Shown: piece after piece, positions 1,708 through 17,479 of the stretch
Numbering within the stretch: position 1 is the stretch's first letter
Layout: every line of letters begins with the position of its first letter
Source of the DNA: a virus
IMG/VR virus record: IMGVR_UViG_3300027974_000198
Location: 1 to 20,608 of that record
Reading direction: 5' to 3' (one strand)
DNA: 20,608 bases
Translations under genes and position numbers: made by a program
Notes under the pieces: generated by a model
What the model was told of the DNA's origin: nothing
Databases searched by the model: none
The model's input: only the letters and a program-made list of their open reading frames with translations

Positions 1708-1908
1708 TTAAAAAGGAATATTGTCGAATTCCCAATATTCACAATCAACTGATCCATGCAGCCAATCTTGCGGTGGCTGTGCTTGGTACTGTTTGCATTG
1801 TCCTTGGTCATACTCTGTGCAATTGATGCAGTTAACACCAATTGCATTAAGTTCAGCCAGCTGCTTGGATAAGTGCTCCTTGATGGCGTTCAACTCAATC
1901 AAATTCAT
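1708..1908 (-). CDS. 66-residue Cys-rich (putative zinc-binding) phage protein
   Basis: This protein has an N-terminal helix (MNLIELNAIKEHLSKQLAEL) and a C-terminal metal-site-like part: C27-x2-C30, C38 in GQCKQYQ, PPQDW, C56 in DCEYWEFDNIPF. The order CxxC...GxC...PP.DW...C..W..D is a recurring pattern in small proteins of proteobacterial phages, recalled without a family name. Four cysteines would make one zinc site. GAGG lies about 9 bases upstream and its first 14 bases overlap the helicase end in another frame. Function unknown. Confidence 0.7.
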   Translation of the reverse strand: MNLIELNAIKEHLSKQLAELNAIGVNCINCTEYDQGQCKQYQAQPPQDWLHGSVDCEYWEFDNIPF

Positions 1909-3511
1909 ATTCTTTTACCTCGGTGTATTTGCCGTTCTTGCGTGTTGCAATTCGGCGGGGTGTTTGCAAATAGTCTTGTCCTTCATCCATCAAAACTTCA
2001 ATGGCTTGATCAACTGAATTTGGATAGCTGTCGTCCAAACTGCGCTGCAACCACCAGGCCACCGCCTTTTGGCTAGCGTATCCAATGTGGTCAAAGCAAA
2101 CCCATTCGCTGGCGCACTGCAATATGCCGCTGTAATAGTCAACCCTCATGGAGTCAGGCTTACCAGGCTTGCGGTGCAGTTTATATTCCACTCTGGTCAC
2201 GTCATGCCAAACCAGCGTGGTTTCTGCTTGCGCTGACAAGAGCGCGGCTAGGGATACTTTGGCATCCACCGGCTTGACTTCTTCCTCGCGGATCGTTGCA
2301 CCACAGGACGTGCAAATCAGGGCTTTGGGGGCGTTGCGCTCGCCACACTCAGGACAGATGCTGTACGGTCCTTCGGTGTTGCCACCAATTCGTTTAGCCC
2401 GTCCCTTGATAATGTCCACCGGCCCCAAACGCTCAACCGTGTCGGTAAAGTCAAGCACCAAGCAATTCTCTTTATTCGGTGAAATTCGAGTACCTCGGCC
2501 CATTCCTTGGACATACAGTACCGGTGACTTAGTAGGACGGCACCAAATAATGCAGTCCACGTCCGGCACGTCAAAACCAACTGATAGCGCCAGCACGGTG
2601 ACCAAGCAATGAATCTGGCCAGACCGGAAGTCTTGGATTAAGTCTTGGCGCTCCTGCTTAGGTGTCTCACCACACACAACAGCCGCGGTAATGCCAAGGC
2701 CATTAAGGTTGTCGGCCAGGCATTCAGCGTTGGCCACACTTGGCGTGAAGGCTATCCACTTGCGGCGCTGTGAGGCCATGTAGACGGCTTCCTTGGCTAC
2801 TTGCTTAAGGTAACCGGCGACCACCGCGGATAGCTCGCCAACCTTATAGTCACCGTTGGCAATACCGACCTGGCTGGCATCGATGCGGATGGTCATTTTC
2901 TCGGTGGGCGGCACCAATGGCGCAATAAACTTTTGCTGCAGCAGCTCGCCCATGGTCACCTTGCTGGCCGTGCCGGTAAACAGCGGATCGTCACCGTCGG
3001 TCAGCCAAACCTGGTTACCTCTAAACGGCGTGGCCGTCATGCCGACCGTGCGGAAGTCGCACAGATTACCCAGCTTGGCCAAGAACGTGCGGTACATTCC
3101 CTGGGCTTTGGTGTCCACCAAGTGAGCTTCGTCAATAATCACAGCCTTGATGTCACCCAACAAGTGCGCTGACTTGTGAATGCTGCCAATCGTGGCCACA
3201 ATCACGTCAGCCTGGTGCTGTTTCTTGCCTAAGCTGGCGCTGACAAACCCGACATGGATGTCGTCCGGCAGCAGTGCCTGTAGCTTGGCCGCATTCTGTT
3301 CGGCCAGCTCCTTGCTAGGCACCAGGACTACCGTGCGAGGGTGGTAATCCGGCCACTGTGCCCACATTTGTCGCACAATCTCGGCGCAAATCACCGACTT
3401 GCCTGCCGCGGTAGGCAACACCAGCAACGGGATGTCGCTAGCATCCTGGTGCTTTGTCCACCAATCAAACAAATCGGTGACCGTGCGCGTCTGGTAGTCG
3501 CGCAGGATCAT
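1895..3511 (-). CDS. Superfamily 2 DNA/RNA helicase with C-terminal zinc ribbon
   Basis: The 538-residue protein is an SF2 helicase of the DEAD/DEAH (UvrB/RecG/ResIII-like) type. Motifs in order: Walker A LPTAAGKS (32-39), motif Ia-like VVLVPSKELAEQN (61-73), Walker B IIDEAH (125-130), motif III MTATPF (158-163), motif V region TVLALSVGFDVPDVD (305-319), and motif VI QGMGRGTR (335-342) with the arginine finger. After the helicase core is a four-Cys ribbon (C386, C389, C400, C403), then an alpha/beta C-terminal part without a recognised domain. The likely role is ATP-driven unwinding or branch processing in phage replication and recombination, consistent with the adjacent nuclease and recombinase genes. 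It starts four bases inside the nuclease gene (ATGA) with GGAAGGA upstream. A chromatin-type or restriction-type role is not favoured because no nuclease or methylase domain is fused. Confidence 0.9.
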   Translation of the reverse strand: MILRDYQTRTVTDLFDWWTKHQDASDIPLLVLPTAAGKSVICAEIVRQMWAQWPDYHPRTVVLVPSKELAEQNAAKLQALLPDDIHVGFVSASLGKKQHQADVIVATIGSIHKSAHLLGDIKAVIIDEAHLVDTKAQGMYRTFLAKLGNLCDFRTVGMTATPFRGNQVWLTDGDDPLFTGTASKVTMGELLQQKFIAPLVPPTEKMTIRIDASQVGIANGDYKVGELSAVVAGYLKQVAKEAVYMASQRRKWIAFTPSVANAECLADNLNGLGITAAVVCGETPKQERQDLIQDFRSGQIHCLVTVLALSVGFDVPDVDCIIWCRPTKSPVLYVQGMGRGTRISPNKENCLVLDFTDTVERLGPVDIIKGRAKRIGGNTEGPYSICPECGERNAPKALICTSCGATIREEEVKPVDAKVSLAALLSAQAETTLVWHDVTRVEYKLHRKPGKPDSMRVDYYSGILQCASEWVCFDHIGYASQKAVAWWLQRSLDDSYPNSVDQAIEVLMDEGQDYLQTPRRIATRKNGKYTEVKEYEFD

Positions 3512-4593
3512 ACAATCCTTCCCTCAAACTGGATGCGGATTTTCATCACGTCTTCGTGCACCAAGACTGCCTTGTCTTTGGCTGCATGAATTTCGGCGCT
3601 GGCCAAGTGTTTAGGGTTTACCTTGGGGTCTCCGTTGGTGAATTGTTGGCCGTCGGCCATCTGGTACACCACAGCGTCACCGTCCATGTCCATGGGCTTG
3701 GCACTCTTGGCCAACAAGATCGGTATGTAGCGGTGATGGCTACAACCGTCGCGCTGCACCTTGTCGGACACCTTTCCAGCATGGACTTCACACAGCCAGT
3801 TGCCGTTACCTTCCAACTTAGGCGTGATATGAGCGCATGACCGGCAAGTGGGTGCCGGTACATCGGTGCCATGGCAAATGCTGTGGAAGTCGCAAAACTT
3901 ACACTCGTACCAGGTCGGATCAGTGCTGATCCCCACCGGTGGCTCAGTGGCGGTAATGATGGCCAGTGCCTTGTCCACAATTGCTTGCGCTGCTTGTGCG
4001 TCGTACTCCAAGCGTTCGGTGTAAATGTCGTCGTTGTCTTTATTAACGACAATGTAAATGGCTCGCCTGCAACCGTCTTCGCCAAACTCAGCAATTGACC
4101 AGTGCATATATGATTGCATCTGCGCCCAGTGCTCGGGCTTGGCCACCTTCACTCCAGACTTTTGCATTTCCCGAAAATATTTGTCGGATGCTGTTTTTAT
4201 TTCCAGTATATGCGGGGCTTTAGGTGCTTGGGGTAAGCCAATCACAATGCCGTCGGCATTGCCTCGAAAGTGGTGCCCAGTGCTTGGTTCACTCCAGCCA
4301 AATTGTTTGCCGGTGGATGGGTTTACGTCAAAGACCGTGCAGCCAATGGCTCGCAAATCAGCATAAACCCTTGGTTCTTGCAAATGGCCACTGCGAAACA
4401 CTCGATACAGCCGGCCAGAGAATTCAGCGGGTTTGGACCATCTAAAAGAATACCAATGCTGGCGCAAACAAGGCTTACCAATGGCGCTAGCGCCAAGATA
4501 AGGGCGTTGCAACTCGGCGCCATACTTTGCCTTGTAATGGGCAAAGATGGCGTCGGCCACAGGGTCCACGACAGATGCGGGGATTGCGGCCAT
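3508..4593 (-). CDS. PD-(D/E)XK exonuclease with Cas4/AddB-like cysteine cluster
   Basis: The 361-residue protein carries a PD-(D/E)XK core: D114 in GNADGIVIG, E131-I-K133 in ILEIKTAS, and a downstream Q160 in QMQSYM, the motif II/III/QxxxY-like arrangement of RecB/Cas4-type nucleases. C42 plus C231-x2-C234-x5-C240 matches the split four-cysteine layout that holds an iron-sulfur cluster in Cas4 and AddB. A further set (C250, C253, C268, C284, with HH at 286-287) looks like a separate zinc knuckle. It probably resects double-stranded ends for the recombination module encoded just upstream. The start follows the previous stop by three bases and has only a weak AAGAAAG ribosome site, suggesting coupling. 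The precise polarity of cutting cannot be told from sequence. Confidence 0.85.
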   Translation of the reverse strand: MAAIPASVVDPVADAIFAHYKAKYGAELQRPYLGASAIGKPCLRQHWYSFRWSKPAEFSGRLYRVFRSGHLQEPRVYADLRAIGCTVFDVNPSTGKQFGWSEPSTGHHFRGNADGIVIGLPQAPKAPHILEIKTASDKYFREMQKSGVKVAKPEHWAQMQSYMHWSIAEFGEDGCRRAIYIVVNKDNDDIYTERLEYDAQAAQAIVDKALAIITATEPPVGISTDPTWYECKFCDFHSICHGTDVPAPTCRSCAHITPKLEGNGNWLCEVHAGKVSDKVQRDGCSHHRYIPILLAKSAKPMDMDGDAVVYQMADGQQFTNGDPKVNPKHLASAEIHAAKDKAVLVHEDVMKIRIQFEGRIV

Positions 4594-4596
4594 GGT

Positions 4597-5082
4597 TTAC
4601 TTTCTTGCCCAAGCGGGTGCTTTGGACACCGATGCAGCAGCTGGCGGCGCGGATGCGTCGGTTGCCGGTACAAATGCAACGGTTGAACCACCGGCAGACT
4701 CATAGCCTTTAACATTGTTGCTGGCCTGGTACTGGCCTTGAGCCTCGCGCACCACTACCTTGACCTTGACGGGCTTAAAGTGCAGGGCTGCGGTGTCTTC
4801 CAGCTTGATCACGTTGACGGCGTGGCACAGGGCTGAGAGCTGGCTCTGAGCGATGCGCTGGGTGTCCTCGTTTGTGTGTTGGATGTTGAGGTTCTCCCAA
4901 ATACGGCGGCCCTTGTACTGGCCATCCAAAACTTCAAAGGTCATTTTCAACCCGGTGCCGTTGCCAGACTTCAGCGGGGCGACATCGGATTCAATGCAAT
5001 GGGCAAGGTAAGTGCCTGCGGGGATTGGGCCAGTCACGGCCTGGGGTGCTACGGTTGATGCGTCAAAAGAAAAATGTGCCAT
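4597..5082 (-). CDS. DUF669-family phage protein, putative ssDNA-binding protein
   Basis: The 161-residue protein begins with ASTVAPQAVTGPIPAGTY and continues GTGLKMTFEVLDGQYKGRRIWENLNIQHTNEDTQRIAQSQLSAL (shown only in outline), the characteristic order of DUF669 proteins: PxGxY, a beta strand with the G-x-K-x-x-F-x-V core, and the G-R-x-x-(W/F)-x-x-(L/F)-x-(I/L) segment. Members are found in phage recombination clusters and are considered single-strand DNA-binding proteins. The last 40 residues are Ala/Pro/Ser-rich and probably disordered, as in many SSBs. It sits between a Sak4-like ATPase and an exonuclease, which fits that role. AGGAAACACAAA precedes the ATG, giving a clear ribosome binding site. 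Confidence 0.82.
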   Translation of the reverse strand: MAHFSFDASTVAPQAVTGPIPAGTYLAHCIESDVAPLKSGNGTGLKMTFEVLDGQYKGRRIWENLNIQHTNEDTQRIAQSQLSALCHAVNVIKLEDTAALHFKPVKVKVVVREAQGQYQASNNVKGYESAGGSTVAFVPATDASAPPAAASVSKAPAWARK

Positions 5083-5115
5083 TTTGTGTTTCCTAGTTAA
5101 TGGTTGGACTGAAAA

Positions 5116-5862
5116 TCAGGACTGAGCTGCAGTGAGCGCAGCCTGGAATGCCGCCCAGTCAAGCGGCATATTGGTGAGGCCAAAGCGATTACCACCGCAA
5201 TGAGCTGGATGGGGTTCAACGTGCAAAATGCGCTCGCCGGTAGTGGTGGCTTTGGTTTCTTTCTTGGAAAAGCCTGCGTCGGTCTTGCTGGTAAATATGC
5301 GGTAACCGGCATAGCCAATGATGTCGGCCCATTCCTGCACCAAGCCAGCGGCCTTGTCGTGCAACTTTAAAACATGGGAGTCATAGCCCTCGGTCAAGGG
5401 ATCTTCGATGCGCTTAATCTTGTCGTGAGCAATCAGGATGATGCCCATGCCTTTGGTAGCTCGCAAAACTTCCAAGCCAGACAGCAGGTTGCGCCACTCT
5501 TCAGCTGCTGCAACATAACCCTTACCAAAGCCCGGCGCTTCGATGTTCTTCCAGTTGTTTTGCTTGCAGACGTAGTCCTGCAACATGGGTTCAAGCCAAT
5601 CAAGCGAGTCAATGAACAAGGATTCAAACTTGTGATCCTGACTGATCAGTGTCTCAATGGCTGCGTACACGTCAGCCAGGCTTGCGGCCAACGGAAAAGC
5701 GTTAGCGTCTACGGCGTCAGCGCCGTCCTCAGTCAGAATGCCAATGGCGTTAGGTGCCATGGCGGCAAAGGTCGTTTTACCGATCTTGCCTTGGCCAACA
5801 ATCACAATTTTGGGGGCGCGGACACGGCGGGTCTTAGAGATGGAGTTCAGGTCAAAGCTCAT
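5116..5862 (-). CDS. AAA_24 / Sak4-like RecA-fold ATPase (phage recombinase)
   Basis: The 248-residue protein has Walker A GQGKIGKTTF (23-32) followed by an alpha/beta core, Walker B SLFIDSLDWLEP (81-92) with D85, and GIILIAHDKIKRIEDP, the sensor/loop strand ending in His-Asp. This is the layout of the AAA_24 family, which includes the short RadA/RecA-core Sak4 recombinases of phages. Sak4-type proteins pair single strands with help from an SSB, and a DUF669 protein follows 33 bases downstream, with an exonuclease next. That three-gene set is a typical phage recombination module. The start overlaps the preceding gene's stop (ATGA). A distinction between Sak4 and other AAA_24 ATPases is not possible by eye. 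Confidence 0.85.
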   Translation of the reverse strand: MSFDLNSISKTRRVRAPKIVIVGQGKIGKTTFAAMAPNAIGILTEDGADAVDANAFPLAASLADVYAAIETLISQDHKFESLFIDSLDWLEPMLQDYVCKQNNWKNIEAPGFGKGYVAAAEEWRNLLSGLEVLRATKGMGIILIAHDKIKRIEDPLTEGYDSHVLKLHDKAAGLVQEWADIIGYAGYRIFTSKTDAGFSKKETKATTTGERILHVEPHPAHCGGNRFGLTNMPLDWAAFQAALTAAQS

Positions 5863-10081: not shown

Positions 10082-10320
10082 TGGGGCTGACTTTAGTTGC
10101 CGTCAGCTTTTGGGGGAAAGTTGATTCTGTGTGCCAACATACCGAGGCTGTTGGTAATGAGGAGCTGTGGGACAGCACGCGAAAGCGGAAAAGAGGAACT
10201 AACAGCACAGATTCAGCGAGTACCCCGCTTTTTTGGCATAACAAACAATTCAATTGTCGCTGTGGGCGATTTTCGAAGACAATTTTCCCAATTACGCGCA
10301 CGCGCACGGGGCAAGCATGA
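10078..10320 (+). CDS. 80-residue unknown ORF between resolvase and terminase small subunit
   Basis: The frame is flanked on both sides by ATGA overlaps, with the resolvase stop and with the terminase small subunit start, which is the main support. The product starts with a short hydrophobic stretch (MMGLTLVAVSFWG), has a basic RKRKRG segment near 35-40 and a C-x-C (NCRCGRF) later. It looks less like a folded protein than its neighbours: no clear secondary-structure pattern and no family recognised. A different-frame ORF overlaps it. It may be a real accessory gene, or a spacer in which the start codons are coincidental. Confidence 0.4.
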   Translation: MMGLTLVAVSFWGKVDSVCQHTEAVGNEELWDSTRKRKRGTNSTDSASTPLFWHNKQFNCRCGRFSKTIFPITRTRTGQA

Positions 10321-10829
10321 AAACTTTGGCAGAAAAAACAACTAAAAGCGGCGCGATTATGGGCAGACCGGTGGAATTTCCAATTGAAAACCCAGTCTGG
10401 CAGCAGATCATTGATGAGATTGCTGGCGGCAAAAGCCTGTCTGGCGCTTTGCGTTTGGAGGGAATGCCAAGCTATGGTTTGGCCAAGCTGATGATCCGAA
10501 CCAACCCAGAGTACAAGGAAGCCTACGAAAAGGCCGTAGAAGACCGCGCAGACCGTTTGGCGGAGGAGATTGTTGAGTTGGCTGATATGGTGCCTCCAGA
10601 CGGCTTAGAAGGCACTGCAATGAGCGCCTGGGTGAATCAGAAACGGTTGCAGGTCGATGCACGCAAATGGGTGGCCAGCAAGCTTAAGCCGCGGACGTAT
10701 GGCGACCGGCTTGATGTCAGCGTCAGCGACAACCGGATCAGCGTTATTCAGGCGCTGGAGCAGGCGCAAGCTCGAGTGCAGATCGGCATGGCCAAGTCGG
10801 ACGACATCACTGACATAGAGCCAAAGTAG
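10317..10829 (+). CDS. Terminase small subunit
   Basis: The 170-residue protein starts at 10317 (MKTLAEKTT), overlapping the previous stop by ATGA; another possible start is 10359 (MGRPVEFP) and a TTG lies upstream at 10254. The core reads GGKSLSGALRLEGMPSYGL, a helix-turn-helix for DNA recognition, followed by NPEYKEAYEKAVEDRADRLAEEI, a long oligomerisation helix, then QKRLQVDARKWVASKLKPRTYGDRL, the Arg/Lys-rich end common to small terminases of the Bbp25/Nu1-like group. It should recognise pac or cos DNA and recruit the large subunit. The large subunit lies 2.3 kb downstream, with a 380-base non-coding stretch and a 637-codon gene between, an unusual separation. Confidence 0.85.
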   Translation: MKTLAEKTTKSGAIMGRPVEFPIENPVWQQIIDEIAGGKSLSGALRLEGMPSYGLAKLMIRTNPEYKEAYEKAVEDRADRLAEEIVELADMVPPDGLEGTAMSAWVNQKRLQVDARKWVASKLKPRTYGDRLDVSVSDNRISVIQALEQAQARVQIGMAKSDDITDIEPK

Positions 10830-10928
10830 CATGTGCATATCTTTTAACGCTAAGTCATTGATCTATATGCTTTCTTACGGATTGCTTACAGAATCCATTT
10901 TACACGATGTCCATTATGTTAAGTCAAT

Positions 10929-11032
10929 TGTGGATAACTCATGCGTTCCTGCCTACTAATTGTGCAGAATGTAGTTGTCCACAGGGCAATGTGTCTAACC
11001 TTGGCCTAATCATGCGCTCAGCCTGTGGATAA
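10929..11032. promoter_or_regulatory. DnaA-box cluster (two perfect, one near-consensus)
   Basis: TGTGGATAA, the exact complement of the DnaA box TTATCCACA, occurs at 10929-10937 and 11024-11032 in the same orientation. TTGTCCACA, one mismatch, lies between them at 10975-10983 in the other orientation. Both perfect copies extend to TGTGGATAAC. Three boxes within about 100 bases of non-coding DNA is far above chance for a 9-mer. It suggests host DnaA binding, either to start phage replication or to control late transcription. Confidence 0.65.
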
Positions 11033-11054
11033 CTTTTCAATTGGGCTTGGTCGT

Positions 11055-11132
11055 GGCCGGATGTCGTGTGGCCAGCGCCCATGGCCTGCCCACCGGCTGG
11101 CCGGGCGGGGGGGTAGGGCCAGCGCAAAGGCC
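11055..11132. other. GC-rich island with six GGCC sites
   Basis: GGCC occurs at 11055, 11070, 11083, 11099, 11117 and 11129, within a block that is strongly GC-rich, including a seven-G run beside GGGCGG and partly repeated GGCCAGCGC elements (11070-11078 and 11117-11125). It is sharply bounded by AT-rich DNA on the right (T-runs from about 11161). Neighbouring genes are near balanced composition, so the island stands out. It can form several hairpins, such as CCGG-CTGG-CCGG. Function unknown. Confidence 0.55.
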
Positions 11133-11210
11133 GCGCCGGAACGGGTGCCCCCACGCACAATTTTTTATTTTTTTAAGGTATATTAAGCCGATCAAAACAG
11201 GGGTTTATTT

Positions 11211-13124
11211 ATGGCCACAAATAACTTGGCACCCGGCGGCAGAAATGTATTGAGTTCTATGCTGGGTTGGATGCAAGATCCAAACCGGACGCAGCAAATG
11301 CAAGGTATTGGCCAAGCGCTTAGTGGTAAAAATTTGCAGGAATCTCAACAACGCTGGCGTGATTTGCAGGCGAAGGCTTTTGGTGACAAGAGAAATCCGC
11401 TGAAGGTAACTGACCAGGCTGCGTTTGAGGAATTGTCGAATATGACGATGGCGGGGCCGATGTCGTTTGCCTCAATGGGCATAACCAAGGGTGTTAAGCC
11501 TGCAACTGATTTACAGAAATTGCAGGACATTACCGAGCAATATCAGAAATTAAGCAGCAAGGATCGAGATCTGGCTGATTTAGCTTTTACTGGTGAGGTG
11601 ACGGGTAGTGCGGTGCCGCGGTCCGAAGTGAAGAAGATACTCAAGGGCAATCCGGACATAGCCAAGTCGATATTGAACAATCCGGCTTTTAAGATTAACG
11701 GGTATGTGCCCAAGTCGGTAATTGATGATGCGTTGAGTACGCGCATGAGGATGAAGGGTGAAACACCGACGACGCCAGGGGCGAAGGCGAGCGAAGCTGA
11801 GTGGAAGGCTTGGGGTGAGAAGCACGGGGTGAATATGACGGTGACTGAGCCTCAGTCGTTGGGCATTACTGATTTGACCAGCAAGAGGGAGATCAAGATA
11901 CCTGGTGGTTTGGAGGGTAAGTTTACGGTGCCGGATATGTTTTGGATGAAGGCAAACAACATTGACCCTGGTGCGCTGCCGAAGGATTTGCATGATCAGT
12001 TGATGCAGAAATTGATCAGGACGCATGAGGTGGCGAATCCGGATCAAGTGGATATGTTTAACCGGTTGAGCTTTGCTCAGTTGTCGCCTAATGCGCCGTT
12101 GACGCCGAATGAATTTTTGGCGCAGCGGTTGCGGTTGACGAATATGGATGAGCTGAAGGCTTTGGCCAGTAGGGTTGGCGAGCCTGGTTTGTCTGTGACG
12201 GCGCAAGGGCAGACGGGAGTGCAGGCAGCTGGCCGCGGTGGTATGGGAGTGCTGGGCACGGCTGAGTTGAAGAATCAGGCGATGTTGGCCAAGTTGATTT
12301 TGGACAAGCCGGAGATGTTTCAGATTGCACCTGGTGAGACTATGCGCGACGTGACGTTGAGGGTGATGAATCAGGTGCCGGGTTTGGGGCCGAAGACTGC
12401 GTCGCTTGGCACGCCTTGGTTGGACTTGAACCGTGCAAACACGTCGGCAGTTGACTTGCACATGATCCGGCACTCGTATGAGAGGATGCTGGACGATCCG
12501 ATTGTGGGCGAGGCTTTTAGAACGCGCATGGCTGGCAAGTTGGGAGTTGAGCCGACTAAAGAAGCTATTTTGGGAGTGCCGACAAAGAAGGTTGAGAAGG
12601 CTGCGATTGACGTGATTGGTGGATCATCATTGTCGAAGATGTACCGCACAAGAACTGGCGAATTGAACGAGATACCTGGTGTGGCCACGCCTGAGAAGTT
12701 GGCGTTTGAGCCTAAGCAGCTGCAAGATTTCAACCCGTTTTACAAGAGAGTGGTTGACTACGTTGATGAGTCTAGGGGTGAAAATCCGGCGATTGAGTTG
12801 TTTCCCGAGCAGTGGCGCAAGTGGGACGTGTACCGGCAACGGTTAGAGCCGCATGAGTTTGCTCATCCGGACTACAGGTTGTTGCCTAAGCAGTCATGGG
12901 AAGAGATGCGAGATGCGCTGACGGCGCACAAGCAAGCAGGGTACACCGGCACTAAGCCGGTGATGAAGGAAGGCGATTGGCGACAGCTGTACTATGGTGC
13001 CGCCACTCCAGCAGCCTTAGCTGGCACGGCAGCATTAGCTGGTGGAGCAATGGCTGCAAAAAATATGCTGGCGCCACAACCGGCGCCAGAACAGCCAGCC
13101 AACTACATGTTGTCGCCATACTGA
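11211..13124 (+). CDS. 637-residue phage protein with embedded HhH-GPD glycosylase-like signature
   Basis: A large protein with no overall family I can name, starting after AGGGG at an ATG in an AT-rich leader. The N-terminal 100 residues include NPLKVTDQAAFEELSNMTMAGPM, an element seen in phage virion-associated or polyvalent proteins. Residues about 285-425 resemble an HhH-GPD DNA glycosylase core: a helical lead-in (LKNQAMLAKLILDKPEMF), then VPGLGPKTASLGTPW (389-403) and SAVDLHMIR (412-420). This matches the LPGVGxKTA...VDTHV signature with Lys395 and Asp415 at the positions of catalytic Lys120 and Asp138 of endonuclease III, separated by 20 rather than 18. No Fe-S cysteines are present. 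Residues 598-618 are Ala/Gly-rich and hydrophobic. It overlaps the terminase start by TGATG. The glycosylase call is inference; the protein may be injected or packaged. Confidence 0.75.
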   Translation: MATNNLAPGGRNVLSSMLGWMQDPNRTQQMQGIGQALSGKNLQESQQRWRDLQAKAFGDKRNPLKVTDQAAFEELSNMTMAGPMSFASMGITKGVKPATDLQKLQDITEQYQKLSSKDRDLADLAFTGEVTGSAVPRSEVKKILKGNPDIAKSILNNPAFKINGYVPKSVIDDALSTRMRMKGETPTTPGAKASEAEWKAWGEKHGVNMTVTEPQSLGITDLTSKREIKIPGGLEGKFTVPDMFWMKANNIDPGALPKDLHDQLMQKLIRTHEVANPDQVDMFNRLSFAQLSPNAPLTPNEFLAQRLRLTNMDELKALASRVGEPGLSVTAQGQTGVQAAGRGGMGVLGTAELKNQAMLAKLILDKPEMFQIAPGETMRDVTLRVMNQVPGLGPKTASLGTPWLDLNRANTSAVDLHMIRHSYERMLDDPIVGEAFRTRMAGKLGVEPTKEAILGVPTKKVEKAAIDVIGGSSLSKMYRTRTGELNEIPGVATPEKLAFEPKQLQDFNPFYKRVVDYVDESRGENPAIELFPEQWRKWDVYRQRLEPHEFAHPDYRLLPKQSWEEMRDALTAHKQAGYTGTKPVMKEGDWRQLYYGAATPAALAGTAALAGGAMAAKNMLAPQPAPEQPANYMLSPY

Positions 13125-14647
13125 TGCAAACCACAATTTACAAATCTGAAGAAGAACAAAAGCTGATGGTGGAGTTATGGTCACCGGCCATAGCTGATGA
13201 TCCGGAGGCTTTTGTGCTTTTTGCATTTCCTTGGGGCCAGAAGAATACTCCGCTGGAGAAGTTTAGTGGCCCACGCAAATGGCAGAGGGAAGTGCTCAGA
13301 GACATTACCCAGCACATCAAGAAGCAAAAGGGTTTGATTGACTATGACACCATCCGCATGGCCGTGTCATCCGGTCGAGGCATTGGCAAATCAGCCTTGG
13401 TGTCCTGGTTGATTTTGTGGATGCTAACCACCCGCATTGGTGGCTCAGTAGTGGTCAGCGCCAACAGCGAGAACCAGCTGCGCTCAGTTACCTGGGCCGA
13501 GCTGACCAAATGGGCTGCAATGCTCATTAACTCGCACTGGTGGGAAATCAGTGCTACCAAACTGGTGCCAGCACAATGGTTGACCGAGCTGGTTGAGCGC
13601 GATTTGCGTAAAGGCACCCGTTATTGGGCATGTGAGGGCAAGCTCTGGAGTGCTGAAAACCCCGATTCTTACGCTGGTGTGCACAATCAAGACGGGATGA
13701 TGCTGATTTTTGACGAATCCAGCGGTATACCTAACCCGATTTGGGAAGTTGGAGCTGGATTCTTTACTGAAAACACGCCGGACAGGTACTGGTTTGCATT
13801 TTCCAACCCCCGGCGCAATGAGGGCTACTTTTTTGAGTGTTTTCACGCCAAACGGGACTTTTGGACGTCAAAAATTGTGGATGCTAGGACGGTGGAGGAC
13901 ACCGACAAGTCGATTTATGAGCAGATCATTGCCGAATATGGCGAGGACAGCAGCCAGGCTAAGGTTGAGGTTTATGGCGAGTTCCCTTCAGCTGGTGAGG
14001 ATCAATTTATCAGCCCGGTGATTGTGGATGATGCTGCCAAGCGCCCGCGTTACAAGGATTTGACGGCACCAATCATCCTTGGAGTTGATCCAGCCAGGGG
14101 TGGCGCAGATTCGACGGTGATTGTGGTGAGACAAGGACGGGACATTGTGGCCATAAAGCGGTACAAGGGCGAGGACACGATGGAGATTGTGGGCCGAGTG
14201 ATTGATGCGATTGAGGAATACAAGCCAACGCTTACCGTCATTGATGAGGGTGGCCTTGGGTATGGGATACTAGACCGGCTGACAGAACAACGCTACAAAG
14301 TCAGAGGGGTGAACTTTGGAGGCAAGGCCAAGCACTCGCAGGCATTTGGAAATAAGCGAGCAGAGATGTGGAACGACATGCGTAACTGGCTGAAATCTGC
14401 TAGTATCCCCACAGATCGGCAGCTGAAGGCTGATTTCACTGGCCCAACGAAGAAACCAAATTCTTCAGGCACTATATTTTTGGAAGGCAAGAAAGAGATG
14501 CGAGCAAGAGGGTTAGCTTCACCGGATGCAGCTGATGCACTTGCTGTTACATTTGCATTTCCTGTAGCGCACAGAGAATACAGGGAGCCTACAATCAGGC
14601 AACTTTCTTCTCAAAGCGCAGTTTCAACCGGATGGATGGGAGCGTAG
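13124..14647 (+). CDS. Terminase large subunit (ATPase-nuclease)
   Basis: The start at 13124 (MQTTIYKSEEE) overlaps the preceding stop as TGATG; the frame is open further upstream, but that part would overlap the previous gene. The 507-residue protein has the packaging-motor layout. The N-terminal ATPase carries Walker A SSGRGIGKSA (82-91), an adenine-side SANSENQLRSVTW stretch, and Walker B MLIFDESS (193-200, D197, E198). A coupling-type SNPRRNEG (227-234) follows. The C-terminal RNase H-like nuclease carries D322 in GVDPARGG, D374 in VIDEGGLGYG and a late acidic DAADALAV. It packages DNA through the portal encoded downstream. The length and motif order are normal. Confidence 0.93.
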   Translation: MQTTIYKSEEEQKLMVELWSPAIADDPEAFVLFAFPWGQKNTPLEKFSGPRKWQREVLRDITQHIKKQKGLIDYDTIRMAVSSGRGIGKSALVSWLILWMLTTRIGGSVVVSANSENQLRSVTWAELTKWAAMLINSHWWEISATKLVPAQWLTELVERDLRKGTRYWACEGKLWSAENPDSYAGVHNQDGMMLIFDESSGIPNPIWEVGAGFFTENTPDRYWFAFSNPRRNEGYFFECFHAKRDFWTSKIVDARTVEDTDKSIYEQIIAEYGEDSSQAKVEVYGEFPSAGEDQFISPVIVDDAAKRPRYKDLTAPIILGVDPARGGADSTVIVVRQGRDIVAIKRYKGEDTMEIVGRVIDAIEEYKPTLTVIDEGGLGYGILDRLTEQRYKVRGVNFGGKAKHSQAFGNKRAEMWNDMRNWLKSASIPTDRQLKADFTGPTKKPNSSGTIFLEGKKEMRARGLASPDAADALAVTFAFPVAHREYREPTIRQLSSQSAVSTGWMGA

Positions 14648-14802: not shown

Positions 14803-14940
14803 ATGCCACTCGTTAAATCCAAATCACCCGAAGCCTTCCGCAAGAACATCAAAGCCGAAGTCGCTGCCGGTAAGCCGGTCAAACAGGCCGTGGCAATCGC
14901 TTACGCAACCAAGCGTGAAGCAGAAAAGAAGAAAAAATAA
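14803..14940 (+). CDS. 45-residue Lys-rich small phage protein (MPLVKSKS type)
   Basis: A 45-residue protein one base after the previous stop, reading MPLVKSKSPEAFRKNIKAEV, then AAGKPVKQAVAIAYATKREA and a KKKK end. The pattern MPLVKSKS...F.KN(I/V)K.E...GKP.KQAVAIAY..KR is shared by small proteins next to the portal in many phages. It is predicted as two short helices with a basic tail. The stop overlaps the portal start (TAATG), so it is translationally coupled to the portal. No biochemical role is known to me. Confidence 0.8.
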   Translation: MPLVKSKSPEAFRKNIKAEVAAGKPVKQAVAIAYATKREAEKKKK

Positions 14941-17114
14941 TGGCAGATTACACAGGCATCGCCGCAGCCGGTGCTGTGGCCAACGGCGGCAAGCAAAAGG
15001 ACACATCATCCAGTGTCTTGGCGACTGCTCGCGCGCGGTTGGACATGGCTATCGCCGCGCTGTCTGAATCCCGCGAAGATGAGATTGACGACCTGAAGTT
15101 CTACGCTGGTTCGCCCGACAACCATTGGCAATGGCCAGCGGACGTACTGGCCACCCGAGGCGCGGTTCAAGGTCAGACCATCAACGCCAGGCCGTGCCTG
15201 ACAATCAACAAACTGCCCCAGCACGTAAGGCAAGTGACCAATGACCAACGGCAAAACCGCCCAAGTGGCAAAGTTATTCCAGCCGATGACCACGCAGACA
15301 TTGAAGTTGCAGAAATCTTCAACGGCATGGTCAGACACATCGAGTACATCAGCGACGCCGACGTCGCGTACGATACTGCGTGTGAAAACCAAGTCTCCTA
15401 CGGCGAAGGCTACATCCGCATCCTGACCGAGTATTGCGACGCAGACACGTTTGACCAAGACATCAAGATTGGCCGTGTTCGTAACTCATTCAGCGTCTAC
15501 ATGGACCCAACCATTCAAGACCCAACCGGCGCAGATCAACAATGGTGCTTTGTCACTGAAGACATCCCCAAAGACGAATACACCCGCAAATACCCTAACT
15601 CAGCGCCCATCACCACACTGCAATCGCTGGGTGTGGGCGACCAAAATCTGAGCCAATGGCTCACCGAAGATACTATCCGCGTTGCTGATTACTACTATGT
15701 AGATTACGACAAATCAACGCTTAACTTGTACCCAGGGAACGTGACCGCTTTTGAAGGCACCCCAGAGGACAAACAACTGAAAGAAATTTATGGCAAACCT
15801 AAAAGATCTCGTGAATCGGATCGTGTCAAGATTAAATACTGCAAGATTAACGGTTATGAAATTCTTGAAGAACGCGATTGGGCGGGGAAATACATCCCCG
15901 TAGTCCGCATTGTTGGCAATGAGTTTGAAGTCGATGGCCGCTTGTACGTGTCTGGCCTTGTGCGTAACGCCAAAGATGCCCAGCGCATGTACAACTACTG
16001 GGTGAGCCAAGAGGCAGAGATGCTGGCCTTGGCACCCAAGGCACCGTTTATCGGCTACGGTGGCCAGTTTGAAGGCTATGAGAACCAGTGGAAGACTGCA
16101 AACACGACCAACTGGCCGTATTTGGAAGTCAATCCAGACGTTACAGACGGCGCAGGCTCAATCCTGCCATTACCCCAGCGGGCACAGCCTCCAATGGCCT
16201 CCAGCGGGCTGTTGCAGGCCAAAGCAGGCGCTTCTGAGGACATCAAAGCATCTACTGGCCAATACAACGCGTCTTTAGGTATGTCGTCCAACGAGCGCAG
16301 CGGCAAAGCCATTCTGGCCCGCCAGCGCGAGGGTGATGTGGGCACTTACCACTACGGTGACAACTTGGCCCGTGGTGTACGGCACATCGTGCGCCAGTTG
16401 GTGGACTTGATCCCCAAGGTATACGACACCCAACGTGTGGCTCGCATCATTGGTGTGGACGGCGAAACCAATATGGTCAAGCTGAACCCTGACCAGCCGG
16501 AAGCAGTCCGCAAGATTACCGATCAAAACAACCCTGACATTGTGATTGACAAAATTTACAACCCAAGTGTCGGCAAGTACGACGTGGTGGTTGCTACCGG
16601 CCCAGGCTACGCAACCAAGCGCCAAGAAGCCTTGGAAGCAATGGCTCAACTGTTGCAGGGTAATCCGCAACTGTGGTCTGTGGCCGGTGACCTGTTCGTC
16701 AAGAACATGGATTGGCCAGGTGCCCAAGAGATGGCCAAACGCTTTGCTAAGACCATTGATCCTAAGCTCATGGAAGACGGCGACAAGTCACCAGAGTTGC
16801 AAATGGCCGAGCAGCAAATGCAAGCAATGGGTCAAGAGATGGAGCAGATGCACCAGATGATCACCAATGTTGGCAAATCCATTGAGATGCAAGACATGGA
16901 GCGCAAAGACTTTGAAGCTCAGGTAAAACTTTACGAAGCCGAGACCAAACGAATTGCTGCGGTGCAAGCAGGTATGAGCGAGCAACAGATCCAAGATATT
17001 GCTATGGGCGTGGTTGCTGCGGCAATGGAATCGCAAAACATGGTCAATGAAATGCCTGGCCGTGAACAGCAACAGGAAATGGAAACTATGCCACCACAAG
17101 GAATGCCCCAATGA
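14940..17114 (+). CDS. Portal protein, P22-like
   Basis: The 724-residue protein fits the P22 gp1-like portal family in length and sequence. The N-terminal helix (RARLDMAIAALSESREDEIDD) is followed by DLKFYAGSPDNHWQWP, then RPCLTINKLPQHVRQVTNDQR and a conserved EGYIRILTEY wing segment, with FSVYMDPT. The crown/barrel end is long and rich in Met and Gln (EQQMQAMGQEMEQM...) with coiled-coil character, as expected for the portal barrel. It forms a dodecameric ring at the capsid vertex through which the terminase moves DNA. The next gene starts within its stop codon region (ATGATG). The order small protein, portal, without a directly following scaffold or capsid gene, is unusual. Confidence 0.9.
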   Translation: MADYTGIAAAGAVANGGKQKDTSSSVLATARARLDMAIAALSESREDEIDDLKFYAGSPDNHWQWPADVLATRGAVQGQTINARPCLTINKLPQHVRQVTNDQRQNRPSGKVIPADDHADIEVAEIFNGMVRHIEYISDADVAYDTACENQVSYGEGYIRILTEYCDADTFDQDIKIGRVRNSFSVYMDPTIQDPTGADQQWCFVTEDIPKDEYTRKYPNSAPITTLQSLGVGDQNLSQWLTEDTIRVADYYYVDYDKSTLNLYPGNVTAFEGTPEDKQLKEIYGKPKRSRESDRVKIKYCKINGYEILEERDWAGKYIPVVRIVGNEFEVDGRLYVSGLVRNAKDAQRMYNYWVSQEAEMLALAPKAPFIGYGGQFEGYENQWKTANTTNWPYLEVNPDVTDGAGSILPLPQRAQPPMASSGLLQAKAGASEDIKASTGQYNASLGMSSNERSGKAILARQREGDVGTYHYGDNLARGVRHIVRQLVDLIPKVYDTQRVARIIGVDGETNMVKLNPDQPEAVRKITDQNNPDIVIDKIYNPSVGKYDVVVATGPGYATKRQEALEAMAQLLQGNPQLWSVAGDLFVKNMDWPGAQEMAKRFAKTIDPKLMEDGDKSPELQMAEQQMQAMGQEMEQMHQMITNVGKSIEMQDMERKDFEAQVKLYEAETKRIAAVQAGMSEQQIQDIAMGVVAAAMESQNMVNEMPGREQQQEMETMPPQGMPQ

Positions 17115-17479
17115 TGTACAAGGCCGCTGATTTCGTAGGAATGCTGTTCCTTGCCCGTGATGTGGCGCACAGCGTCCACCTTAACACTCGCAGCTATTCC
17201 AAGCACGTTGCGCTCAACACGTTCTATGACAGCATCATTGACCACGCAGACGCATTTGCTGAAGCCTATCAAGGCCGTCATGGTCTGATGGGGCCAATTA
17301 CGCTGCATTCGGCTACCAAGACGTCCAACATCATTGACTTTTTGCAAAGCCAATTGGACGATATTGAAAAATGCCGTTATGAAGTGGTAGACAAATCTGA
17401 TTCATCATTGCAGCAATTGATTGATAATATCGTTGAACTGTACCTCACAACCCTCTACAAACTCCGCTTTTTGGCGTAA
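17111..17479 (+). CDS. Dps/ferritin-like helical-bundle phage protein (DUF5856-like)
   Basis: The 122-residue protein overlaps the portal stop (ATGATG, with starts at 17111 or 17114). It is helical throughout: KAADFVGMLFLARDVAHSVHL, then TRSYSKHVALNTFYDSIIDH, ADAFAEAYQGR and a final helix LQQLIDNIVELYLTTLYKL. The H-x3-T-x-S-Y-x-x-H and D-x-F/x-x-AE pattern resembles the first helices of Dps/mini-ferritins and of a phage group I recall as DUF5856. A complete di-iron site cannot be proven. Its position among structural genes suggests a virion or assembly protein. Confidence is moderate on fold, low on activity. Confidence 0.72.
   Translation: MMYKAADFVGMLFLARDVAHSVHLNTRSYSKHVALNTFYDSIIDHADAFAEAYQGRHGLMGPITLHSATKTSNIIDFLQSQLDDIEKCRYEVVDKSDSSLQQLIDNIVELYLTTLYKLRFLA

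What the first reader, a model, noticed from the sequence alone, without database searches (positions are those of the whole stretch)
11211..13124. HhH-GPD DNA-glycosylase signature inside a 637-residue late-operon phage protein
Residues 389-403 read VPGLGPKTASLGTPW and 412-420 SAVDLHMIR. This matches the helix-hairpin-helix plus Gly/Pro...Asp loop of endonuclease III/MutY enzymes (LPGVGxKTA...VDTHV), with Lys395 and Asp415 at the catalytic Lys120/Asp138 positions and a 20-residue gap instead of 18. The lead-in helix and the region from about 285 also look glycosylase-like. The protein sits next to the large terminase and has a virion-type N-terminal segment, so it could be a DNA repair or base-removal enzyme that is injected, or one that marks DNA during packaging. 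Sequence shows the motif; the activity is inference.
Basis: partly seen in the sequence, partly recalled or inferred. Interest (0 to 1): 0.78.

Follow-up and report, generated by a model that had tools for sequence, protein, structure and literature searches.

The report
Ogg-like DNA glycosylase in phage operon
A gene in the DNA-packaging operon of uncultivated water phages encodes a previously unlabelled base-excising DNA repair fold with both catalytic residues fully conserved; in relatives it is fused to a toxin-like enzyme domain of a kind that phages are thought to inject into their hosts.

Summary
The motif is real and is more than a motif. In 58 aligned relatives Lys395 and Asp415 are invariant. 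AlphaFold2 folds residues 185-600 with pLDDT 90.7 and pTM 0.89. Its best structural matches are Ogg2-type 8-oxoguanine glycosylases (Tm1821 Z 12.9, MjOgg Z 12.7), then OGG1, ROS1, EndoIII, MutY and Mag. Every row down to Z 5.9 has the HhH-GPD fold and the next unrelated row is Z 3.4. Profile comparison puts K395/D415 on OGG1 K249/D268 and EndoIII K120/D138. Pfam, PHROGs and NCBIfam do not recognise it. The same module lies in the terminase/portal region of phages with unrelated packaging genes. In some relatives it is fused to an ART-PolyVal ADP-ribosyltransferase domain, the architecture of injected 'polyvalent' proteins. It is dispensable: phage DSL-LC05, with 72% identical TerL, has TerS abutting TerL and no such gene. 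Most likely it is a bifunctional glycosylase/AP-lyase made late, packaged and injected. Fold and residues are well supported by computation; catalysis, substrate and packaging are inferred. It is a new HhH-GPD subfamily.

The parts
11211..13124 (+). Whole gene, 637-aa HhH-GPD glycosylase-like protein
   Evidence: ORF; about 100 relatives in IMG/VR
11211..11495 (+). Residues 1-95: interchangeable N-terminal cassette, low model confidence, weaker constraint; possible virion leader (inferred)
   Evidence: dN/dS 0.14-0.18 where alignable
11613..11960 (+). Residues 135-250: conserved helical and two-strand region in front of the glycosylase fold
11967..12854 (+). Residues 253-548: HhH-GPD fold
   Evidence: model ranges aligned to Tm1821 and MjOgg, Z 12.9 and 12.7; dN/dS 0.025-0.028 in close relatives
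12342..12422 (+). Residues 378-404: helix-hairpin-helix (378-388, 394-404) with QVPGLGPKTASLG
   Evidence: DSSP of the model; hhalign register with OGG1 and EndoIII
12393..12395 (+). Lys395 codon, predicted Schiff-base lysine
   Evidence: invariant in 58 sequences
12453..12455 (+). Asp415 codon, predicted catalytic aspartate capping helix 416-426
   Evidence: invariant in 58 sequences
12798..12887 (+). Residues 530-559 LFPEQWRKWDVYRQRLEPHEFAHPDYRLLP: most invariant block; its 548 end aligns with the C-terminus of MjOgg; possible substrate pocket (inferred)
13002..13121 (+). Residues 598-637: Ala/Gly/Pro-rich, unmodelled variable tail
10284..10829 (+). Context: terminase small subunit (Sf6 type)
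   Evidence: PF20901 E 7.6e-26
13127..14647 (+). Context: terminase large subunit
   Evidence: phrog_2 E 9.2e-45
14940..17114 (+). Context: P22-like portal
   Evidence: PF16510 E 4.9e-175

Best explanation
The gene encodes a DNA glycosylase with the HhH-GPD fold, closest in shape to Ogg2/OGG1 8-oxoguanine glycosylases. It is expected to work as a bifunctional glycosylase/AP-lyase: the HhH hairpin grips the backbone, Asp415 assists, and Lys395 displaces the flipped base and cleaves the strand by beta-elimination through a Schiff base. The protein is made late with packaging and head genes, is probably packaged through a variable N-terminal segment, and is injected with the DNA. Its likely task there is to remove damaged or modified bases at the start of infection; cleaning oxidised phage DNA is the leading option, attack on host or rival DNA the second. 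Shown by computation: fold, residue register, conservation, context, fusions. Inferred: catalysis, substrate, packaging, biological role.
For: K395 and D415 invariant in 58 sequences down to about 45-50% identity. Domain model pLDDT 90.7, pTM 0.89. VIA-align: 3n0u Z 12.9 (196 aa, 3.2 A), 3knt Z 12.7 (198 aa, 3.4 A), OGG1 about 9.7; all rows down to Z 5.9 are HhH-GPD-fold proteins, next row Z 3.4. hhalign P 1.9e-4 to the OGG1 motif and 1.2e-4 to an EndoIII profile with K and D in register; AlkA, which lacks the lysine, 0.054; TerL control 0.46. dN/dS of the fold 0.025-0.028 in close relatives. Late-gene context in several lineages with unrelated TerL/portal. ART-PolyVal fused before or after the module in relatives. 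Phage polyvalent proteins are typically near virion genes (PMC5512222).
Against: No sequence-family library recognises it. Foldseek's own scores are weak: best E 0.28 for the domain, 0.48 for the full model. Alignment diversity is low (Neff 2.2). No isolate, proteome or assay exists for any member I found. The window protein itself carries no second recognised effector domain. A fold does not prove activity: Mag2 and Qng1/DUF2419 share the fold with different functions.
Confidence: 0.72

Rival explanations
1. An injected offensive or counter-defence glycosylase: it makes abasic sites and nicks in host or competitor DNA, or removes protective base modifications, as part of host takeover.
For: Fusion to ART-PolyVal effector domains in relatives; cytosine-C5 methyltransferase genes in 3 of 20 related records; accessory presence. 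Bacterial glycosylases are known weapons in the opposite direction (Brig1, PMC11078745).
Against: Closest fold is repair-type Ogg; extreme purifying selection rather than diversification of the domain; no methyltransferase found in 17 of 20 records, some of them fragments.
Confidence: 0.28
2. A catalytically inactive HhH-GPD fold used only to bind DNA, for example a DNA-organising internal head protein.
For: Late-operon position; Foldseek weak; non-catalytic fold members exist (Mag2 among the matches).
Against: Both catalytic residues invariant, which a binding-only role would not require; a near relative assembles without it.
Confidence: 0.12
3. A nucleoside or nucleotide N-glycosidase, like the queuosine-salvage enzyme Qng1/DUF2419, acting on free nucleotides.
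For: DUF2419 structures match at Z 7.8 and 7.4; polyvalent proteins often carry nucleotide-targeting enzymes (PMC5512222).
Against: Matches to DNA glycosylases are clearly higher (Z 12.9); the HhH hairpin PGLGPKTA, a DNA-backbone binding element, and the lyase lysine are kept.
Confidence: 0.06
4. A chance motif in a structural phage protein.
For: No Pfam hit.
Against: Fold, register and conservation agree; pattern absent in 18.7 million shuffled residues.
Confidence: 0.03

Closest known systems
Ogg2-type 8-oxoguanine DNA glycosylase (Tm1821 3n0u; MjOgg 3knt/3fhf)
   Same: HhH-GPD fold over 196-198 residues at 3.2-3.4 A, Z 12.7-12.9; no cysteine cluster needed
   Different: 12-14% identity; extra region 135-250 and conserved tail 549-600; phage late gene; substrate untested
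Eukaryotic OGG1
   Same: Motif PGxGxK...VDxHM with Lys/Asp spacing 19 versus 20; Z about 9.7
   Different: 14-16% identity; different architecture
Endonuclease III / MutY
   Same: HhH and GPD motif (LPGVGRKTA...VDTH) in register; Z 6-7
   Different: Lacks the four cysteines of the 4Fe-4S cluster (no Cys at all)
Polyvalent proteins of phages and conjugative elements (Iyer et al. 2017, PMC5512222)
   Same: Located with virion genes; module fused to ART-PolyVal in relatives
   Different: 'Glycosylase' and 'endonuclease III' do not occur in that paper's main text; the window protein is a shorter form without ART
Phage repair glycosylases: T4 endonuclease V (PMC7824862), PaBG UDG-polymerase fusion (PMC7412058), HhH-GPD gp35 of Streptomyces phage Sf3 (PMC5336643)
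   Same: Phage-encoded base-removal enzymes
   Different: Those listed are other folds, or recognisable by Pfam and not reported in the packaging operon or fused to polyvalent effectors

Membership tests
HhH-GPD superfamily | HhH-GPD fold | tested here: met
   Z 12.9 to 5.9 for all HhH-GPD-fold rows, cliff to 3.4; model pLDDT 90.7
HhH-GPD superfamily | Helix-hairpin-helix with PGxGxK/x | tested here: met
   Helices 378-388 and 394-404 flank PGLGPK; nearly invariant
HhH-GPD superfamily | Catalytic Asp after the Gly/Pro loop | tested here: met
   D415 invariant, register with D138/D268
HhH-GPD superfamily | Score above the PF00730 cut-off | tested here: not met
   No PF00730 hit; only PF00633 HHH weakly in 10 of 47 members. 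The family is a divergent relative by fold, outside the Pfam model
Bifunctional glycosylase/lyase (Ogg, EndoIII type) | Lysine in the HhH second helix | tested here: met
   K395 invariant, aligned to K249/K120
Bifunctional glycosylase/lyase (Ogg, EndoIII type) | Base excision and AP-lyase activity | not testable with these tools
   needs biochemistry
Endonuclease III / MutY | 4Fe-4S cluster with four cysteines | tested here: not met
   No cysteine in the protein. Some members of these families lack the cluster, so this argues against the classical form only
Ogg2 | Sequence membership and 8-oxoG-specific C-terminal residue | tested here: inconclusive
   Top fold match but 12-14% identity; no Ogg2 profile was available for a sequence test
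Phage polyvalent proteins | Disparate effector domains in one polypeptide | tested here: met
   Met in relatives L047, L055, L060, L071 with PF18760; not in the window protein itself
Phage polyvalent proteins | Encoded among virion genes | tested here: met
Phage polyvalent proteins | Present in the virion and injected | not testable with these tools
   No isolate or proteome found

The most novel reading that the evidence does not exclude
Phages of several packaging lineages carry and inject a base-excision enzyme with their genome, a virion-borne base-excision step not described for tailed phages in the papers I could search, and the module is traded as a polyvalent effector domain alongside ADP-ribosyltransferases.
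Probability: 0.45. Interest if true: 0.8.

Novelty: new variant of a known kind. Interest (0 to 1): 0.64.

Why it matters
It adds an unrecognised, highly conserved branch to one of the main DNA-repair folds and places it where phages keep virion and injected proteins. If it is delivered with the genome, it would show that tailed phages bring their own base-excision step to infection, for repair of their stored DNA or for attack on host DNA. It would also add a glycosylase to the known set of injected polyvalent enzymes. The prediction is directly testable with a single purified protein and one lysine mutant.

Tried and rejected
Pfam, PHROGs and NCBIfam scans and PDB sequence searches gave nothing significant for the protein; the PHROG hit to a 'head-tail connector' at residues 181-210 is E 0.03 and was not followed. 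No relatives in INPHARED by tblastn or in GTDB genome contigs by two pattern scans. The idea that the nearby DUF5856/Dps-like gene forms an oxidative-damage partner was weakened: DUF5856 is present in 13 of 20 records but also in DSL-LC05 and ctNMl277, where no glycosylase gene was found, and its Dps resemblance is only E 0.076. A glycosylase/methyltransferase pair in the manner of base-excision restriction was tested: C5-methyltransferase in only 3 of 20 records. A required packaging role was rejected because of the empty site in DSL-LC05. I tried to obtain Ogg2 sequences through the genome search for a profile test; the handles were not accepted. I considered whether the ORF upstream of 11211 is an in-frame N-terminal extension; DNA alignment shows conserved non-coding sequence instead.

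Full report
OBSERVATION. The 637-residue ORF at 11211-13124 (+) and both motif stretches are as described. The combined HhH plus Asp pattern did not occur in about 0.5 million residues of other ORFs or 18.7 million shuffled residues. Library searches give no domain, so the claim needed comparative and structural tests.

RELATIVES. Scans of IMG/VR returned about 100 loci. A UniProt entry from an uncultured phage (A0A6J5LUD9, 'uncharacterized') matches at 42% identity. In 58 aligned sequences K395, D415, G391, L392, T396, S398 and L399 are invariant, and P390, G393 and A397 nearly so; with more divergent members K395 and D415 remain invariant while H417 becomes W in two. Conservation covers residues 135-596; residues 1-95 and 598-637 vary. 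Against close relatives dN/dS is 0.025-0.028 for residues 253-548 and 0.14-0.18 for the N-terminal segment. In very similar phages residues after the shared MAxNxLAP start are swapped between two unrelated cassettes.

FOLD. AlphaFold2 on the whole protein gave pLDDT 76.7, pTM 0.71; on residues 185-600 alone with a 47-sequence alignment, pLDDT 90.7, pTM 0.89. Foldseek alone is weak (best E 0.28-0.48, mainly EndoIII and Ogg2). VIA-align on Foldseek's candidates is clear: Tm1821 Ogg Z 12.9, MjOgg Z 12.7, human and mouse OGG1 about 9.7, ROS1 8.0, then EndoIII, Mag1/2, AGOG, MutY and related at 6-7. All rows down to Z 5.9 have the HhH-GPD fold, including the queuosine enzyme DUF2419, and the next row is an unrelated Z 3.4. 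The tool warns that Z under about 13 can be uninformative for helical bundles; here the weight lies in the uniform identity of the rows and the sharp drop. The hairpin helices are 378-388 and 394-404; K395 sits at the start of the second and D415 caps helix 416-426, the arrangement known for HhH-GPD lyases (established knowledge). Profile comparison independently aligns K395/D415 with OGG1 K249/D268 (P 1.9e-4) and EndoIII K120/D138 (P 1.2e-4); AlkA, which lacks the lysine, gives 0.054 and the phage's own terminase 0.46. There is no cysteine, which excludes a classical Fe-S EndoIII or MutY and agrees with an Ogg-like type.

CONTEXT. In the window the gene separates Sf6-type TerS from TerL, followed by a P22-like portal. 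In other relatives TerL and portal belong to other PHROG groups and the gene lies after TerL, before or after the portal, or upstream of TerL. The L035 lineage has a 76% identical glycosylase module but a 40% identical portal and no detectable TerL match to the window, whereas L036 has 77% module identity with 88-89% identical TerL and portal. The module therefore moves between phages. Of 87 loci listed, 15 encode it in ORFs of 900-1,800 residues; ART-PolyVal lies before the module in L055 and L060 and after it in L047 and L071. Iyer et al. (PMC5512222) define polyvalent proteins by such combinations and note that phage versions lie near virion genes; neither 'glycosylase' nor 'endonuclease III' occurs in its main text.

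EMPTY SITE. The closest sequenced phage by TerL (72%) is DSL-LC05, a complete 37.6-kb genome. Its TerS abuts TerL and no relative of this gene was found in it. The gene is thus accessory and cannot be needed for packaging or assembly in general, which argues against the 'marks DNA during packaging' option.

MECHANISM. Best reading: a bifunctional Ogg-like glycosylase/AP-lyase made late and delivered with the genome. Fold, residues, context and fusions are computational results. Catalysis follows from established HhH-GPD chemistry and is not shown. Packaging rests on operon position, the variable N-terminus and the polyvalent fusions. The substrate is unknown: Ogg-like shape suggests oxidised purines, but the strongly conserved block 530-559 at the end of the fold is a feature I did not find described for OGG, so specificity may differ. 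Repair of damaged virion DNA and attack on host or rival DNA both remain open.

NOVELTY AND LIMITS. Phage glycosylases are known (T4 endonuclease V; UDG fused to polymerase in PaBG; a Pfam-detectable HhH-GPD protein in Streptomyces phage Sf3). I found no description of a glycosylase in polyvalent or virion-linked proteins, within a library limited to open-licence papers.

Noticed in passing
window 10830-11210: Non-coding stretch between TerS and the glycosylase gene, conserved among relatives, with two exact DnaA boxes TTATCCACA (10929-10937, 11024-11032; 0 of 100 shuffles had two) and a near-match around 10977, plus a G-rich block; looks like a phage replication origin.
   Followed up: partly
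window 11211-11495 versus L007, L008, L009: Two alternative N-terminal cassettes following a shared start in otherwise very similar phages, as if a leader or adaptor is swapped by recombination.
   Followed up: partly
window 17111-17479: DUF5856 / phrog_858 protein after the portal; a faint Dps-like match (2yjj, E 0.076); also present in relatives lacking the glycosylase.
   Followed up: partly
L067 7644-10988: A second 1,115-aa protein with a strong ART-PolyVal domain (E 6.3e-36) directly downstream of the glycosylase fusion and sharing sequence with the N-terminal part of the L060 fusion.
   Followed up: no
L031 9277-10737; L125 2702-3655: A C5-cytosine methyltransferase in L031 and a methyltransferase-like ORF in L125 in two glycosylase-bearing phages; 3 of 20 records tested carry PF00145.
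   Followed up: partly
window 1895-5862 (-): Early cluster of DEAD-box helicase, PD-(D/E)XK nuclease, DUF669 and AAA_24 proteins on the opposite strand.
   Followed up: no
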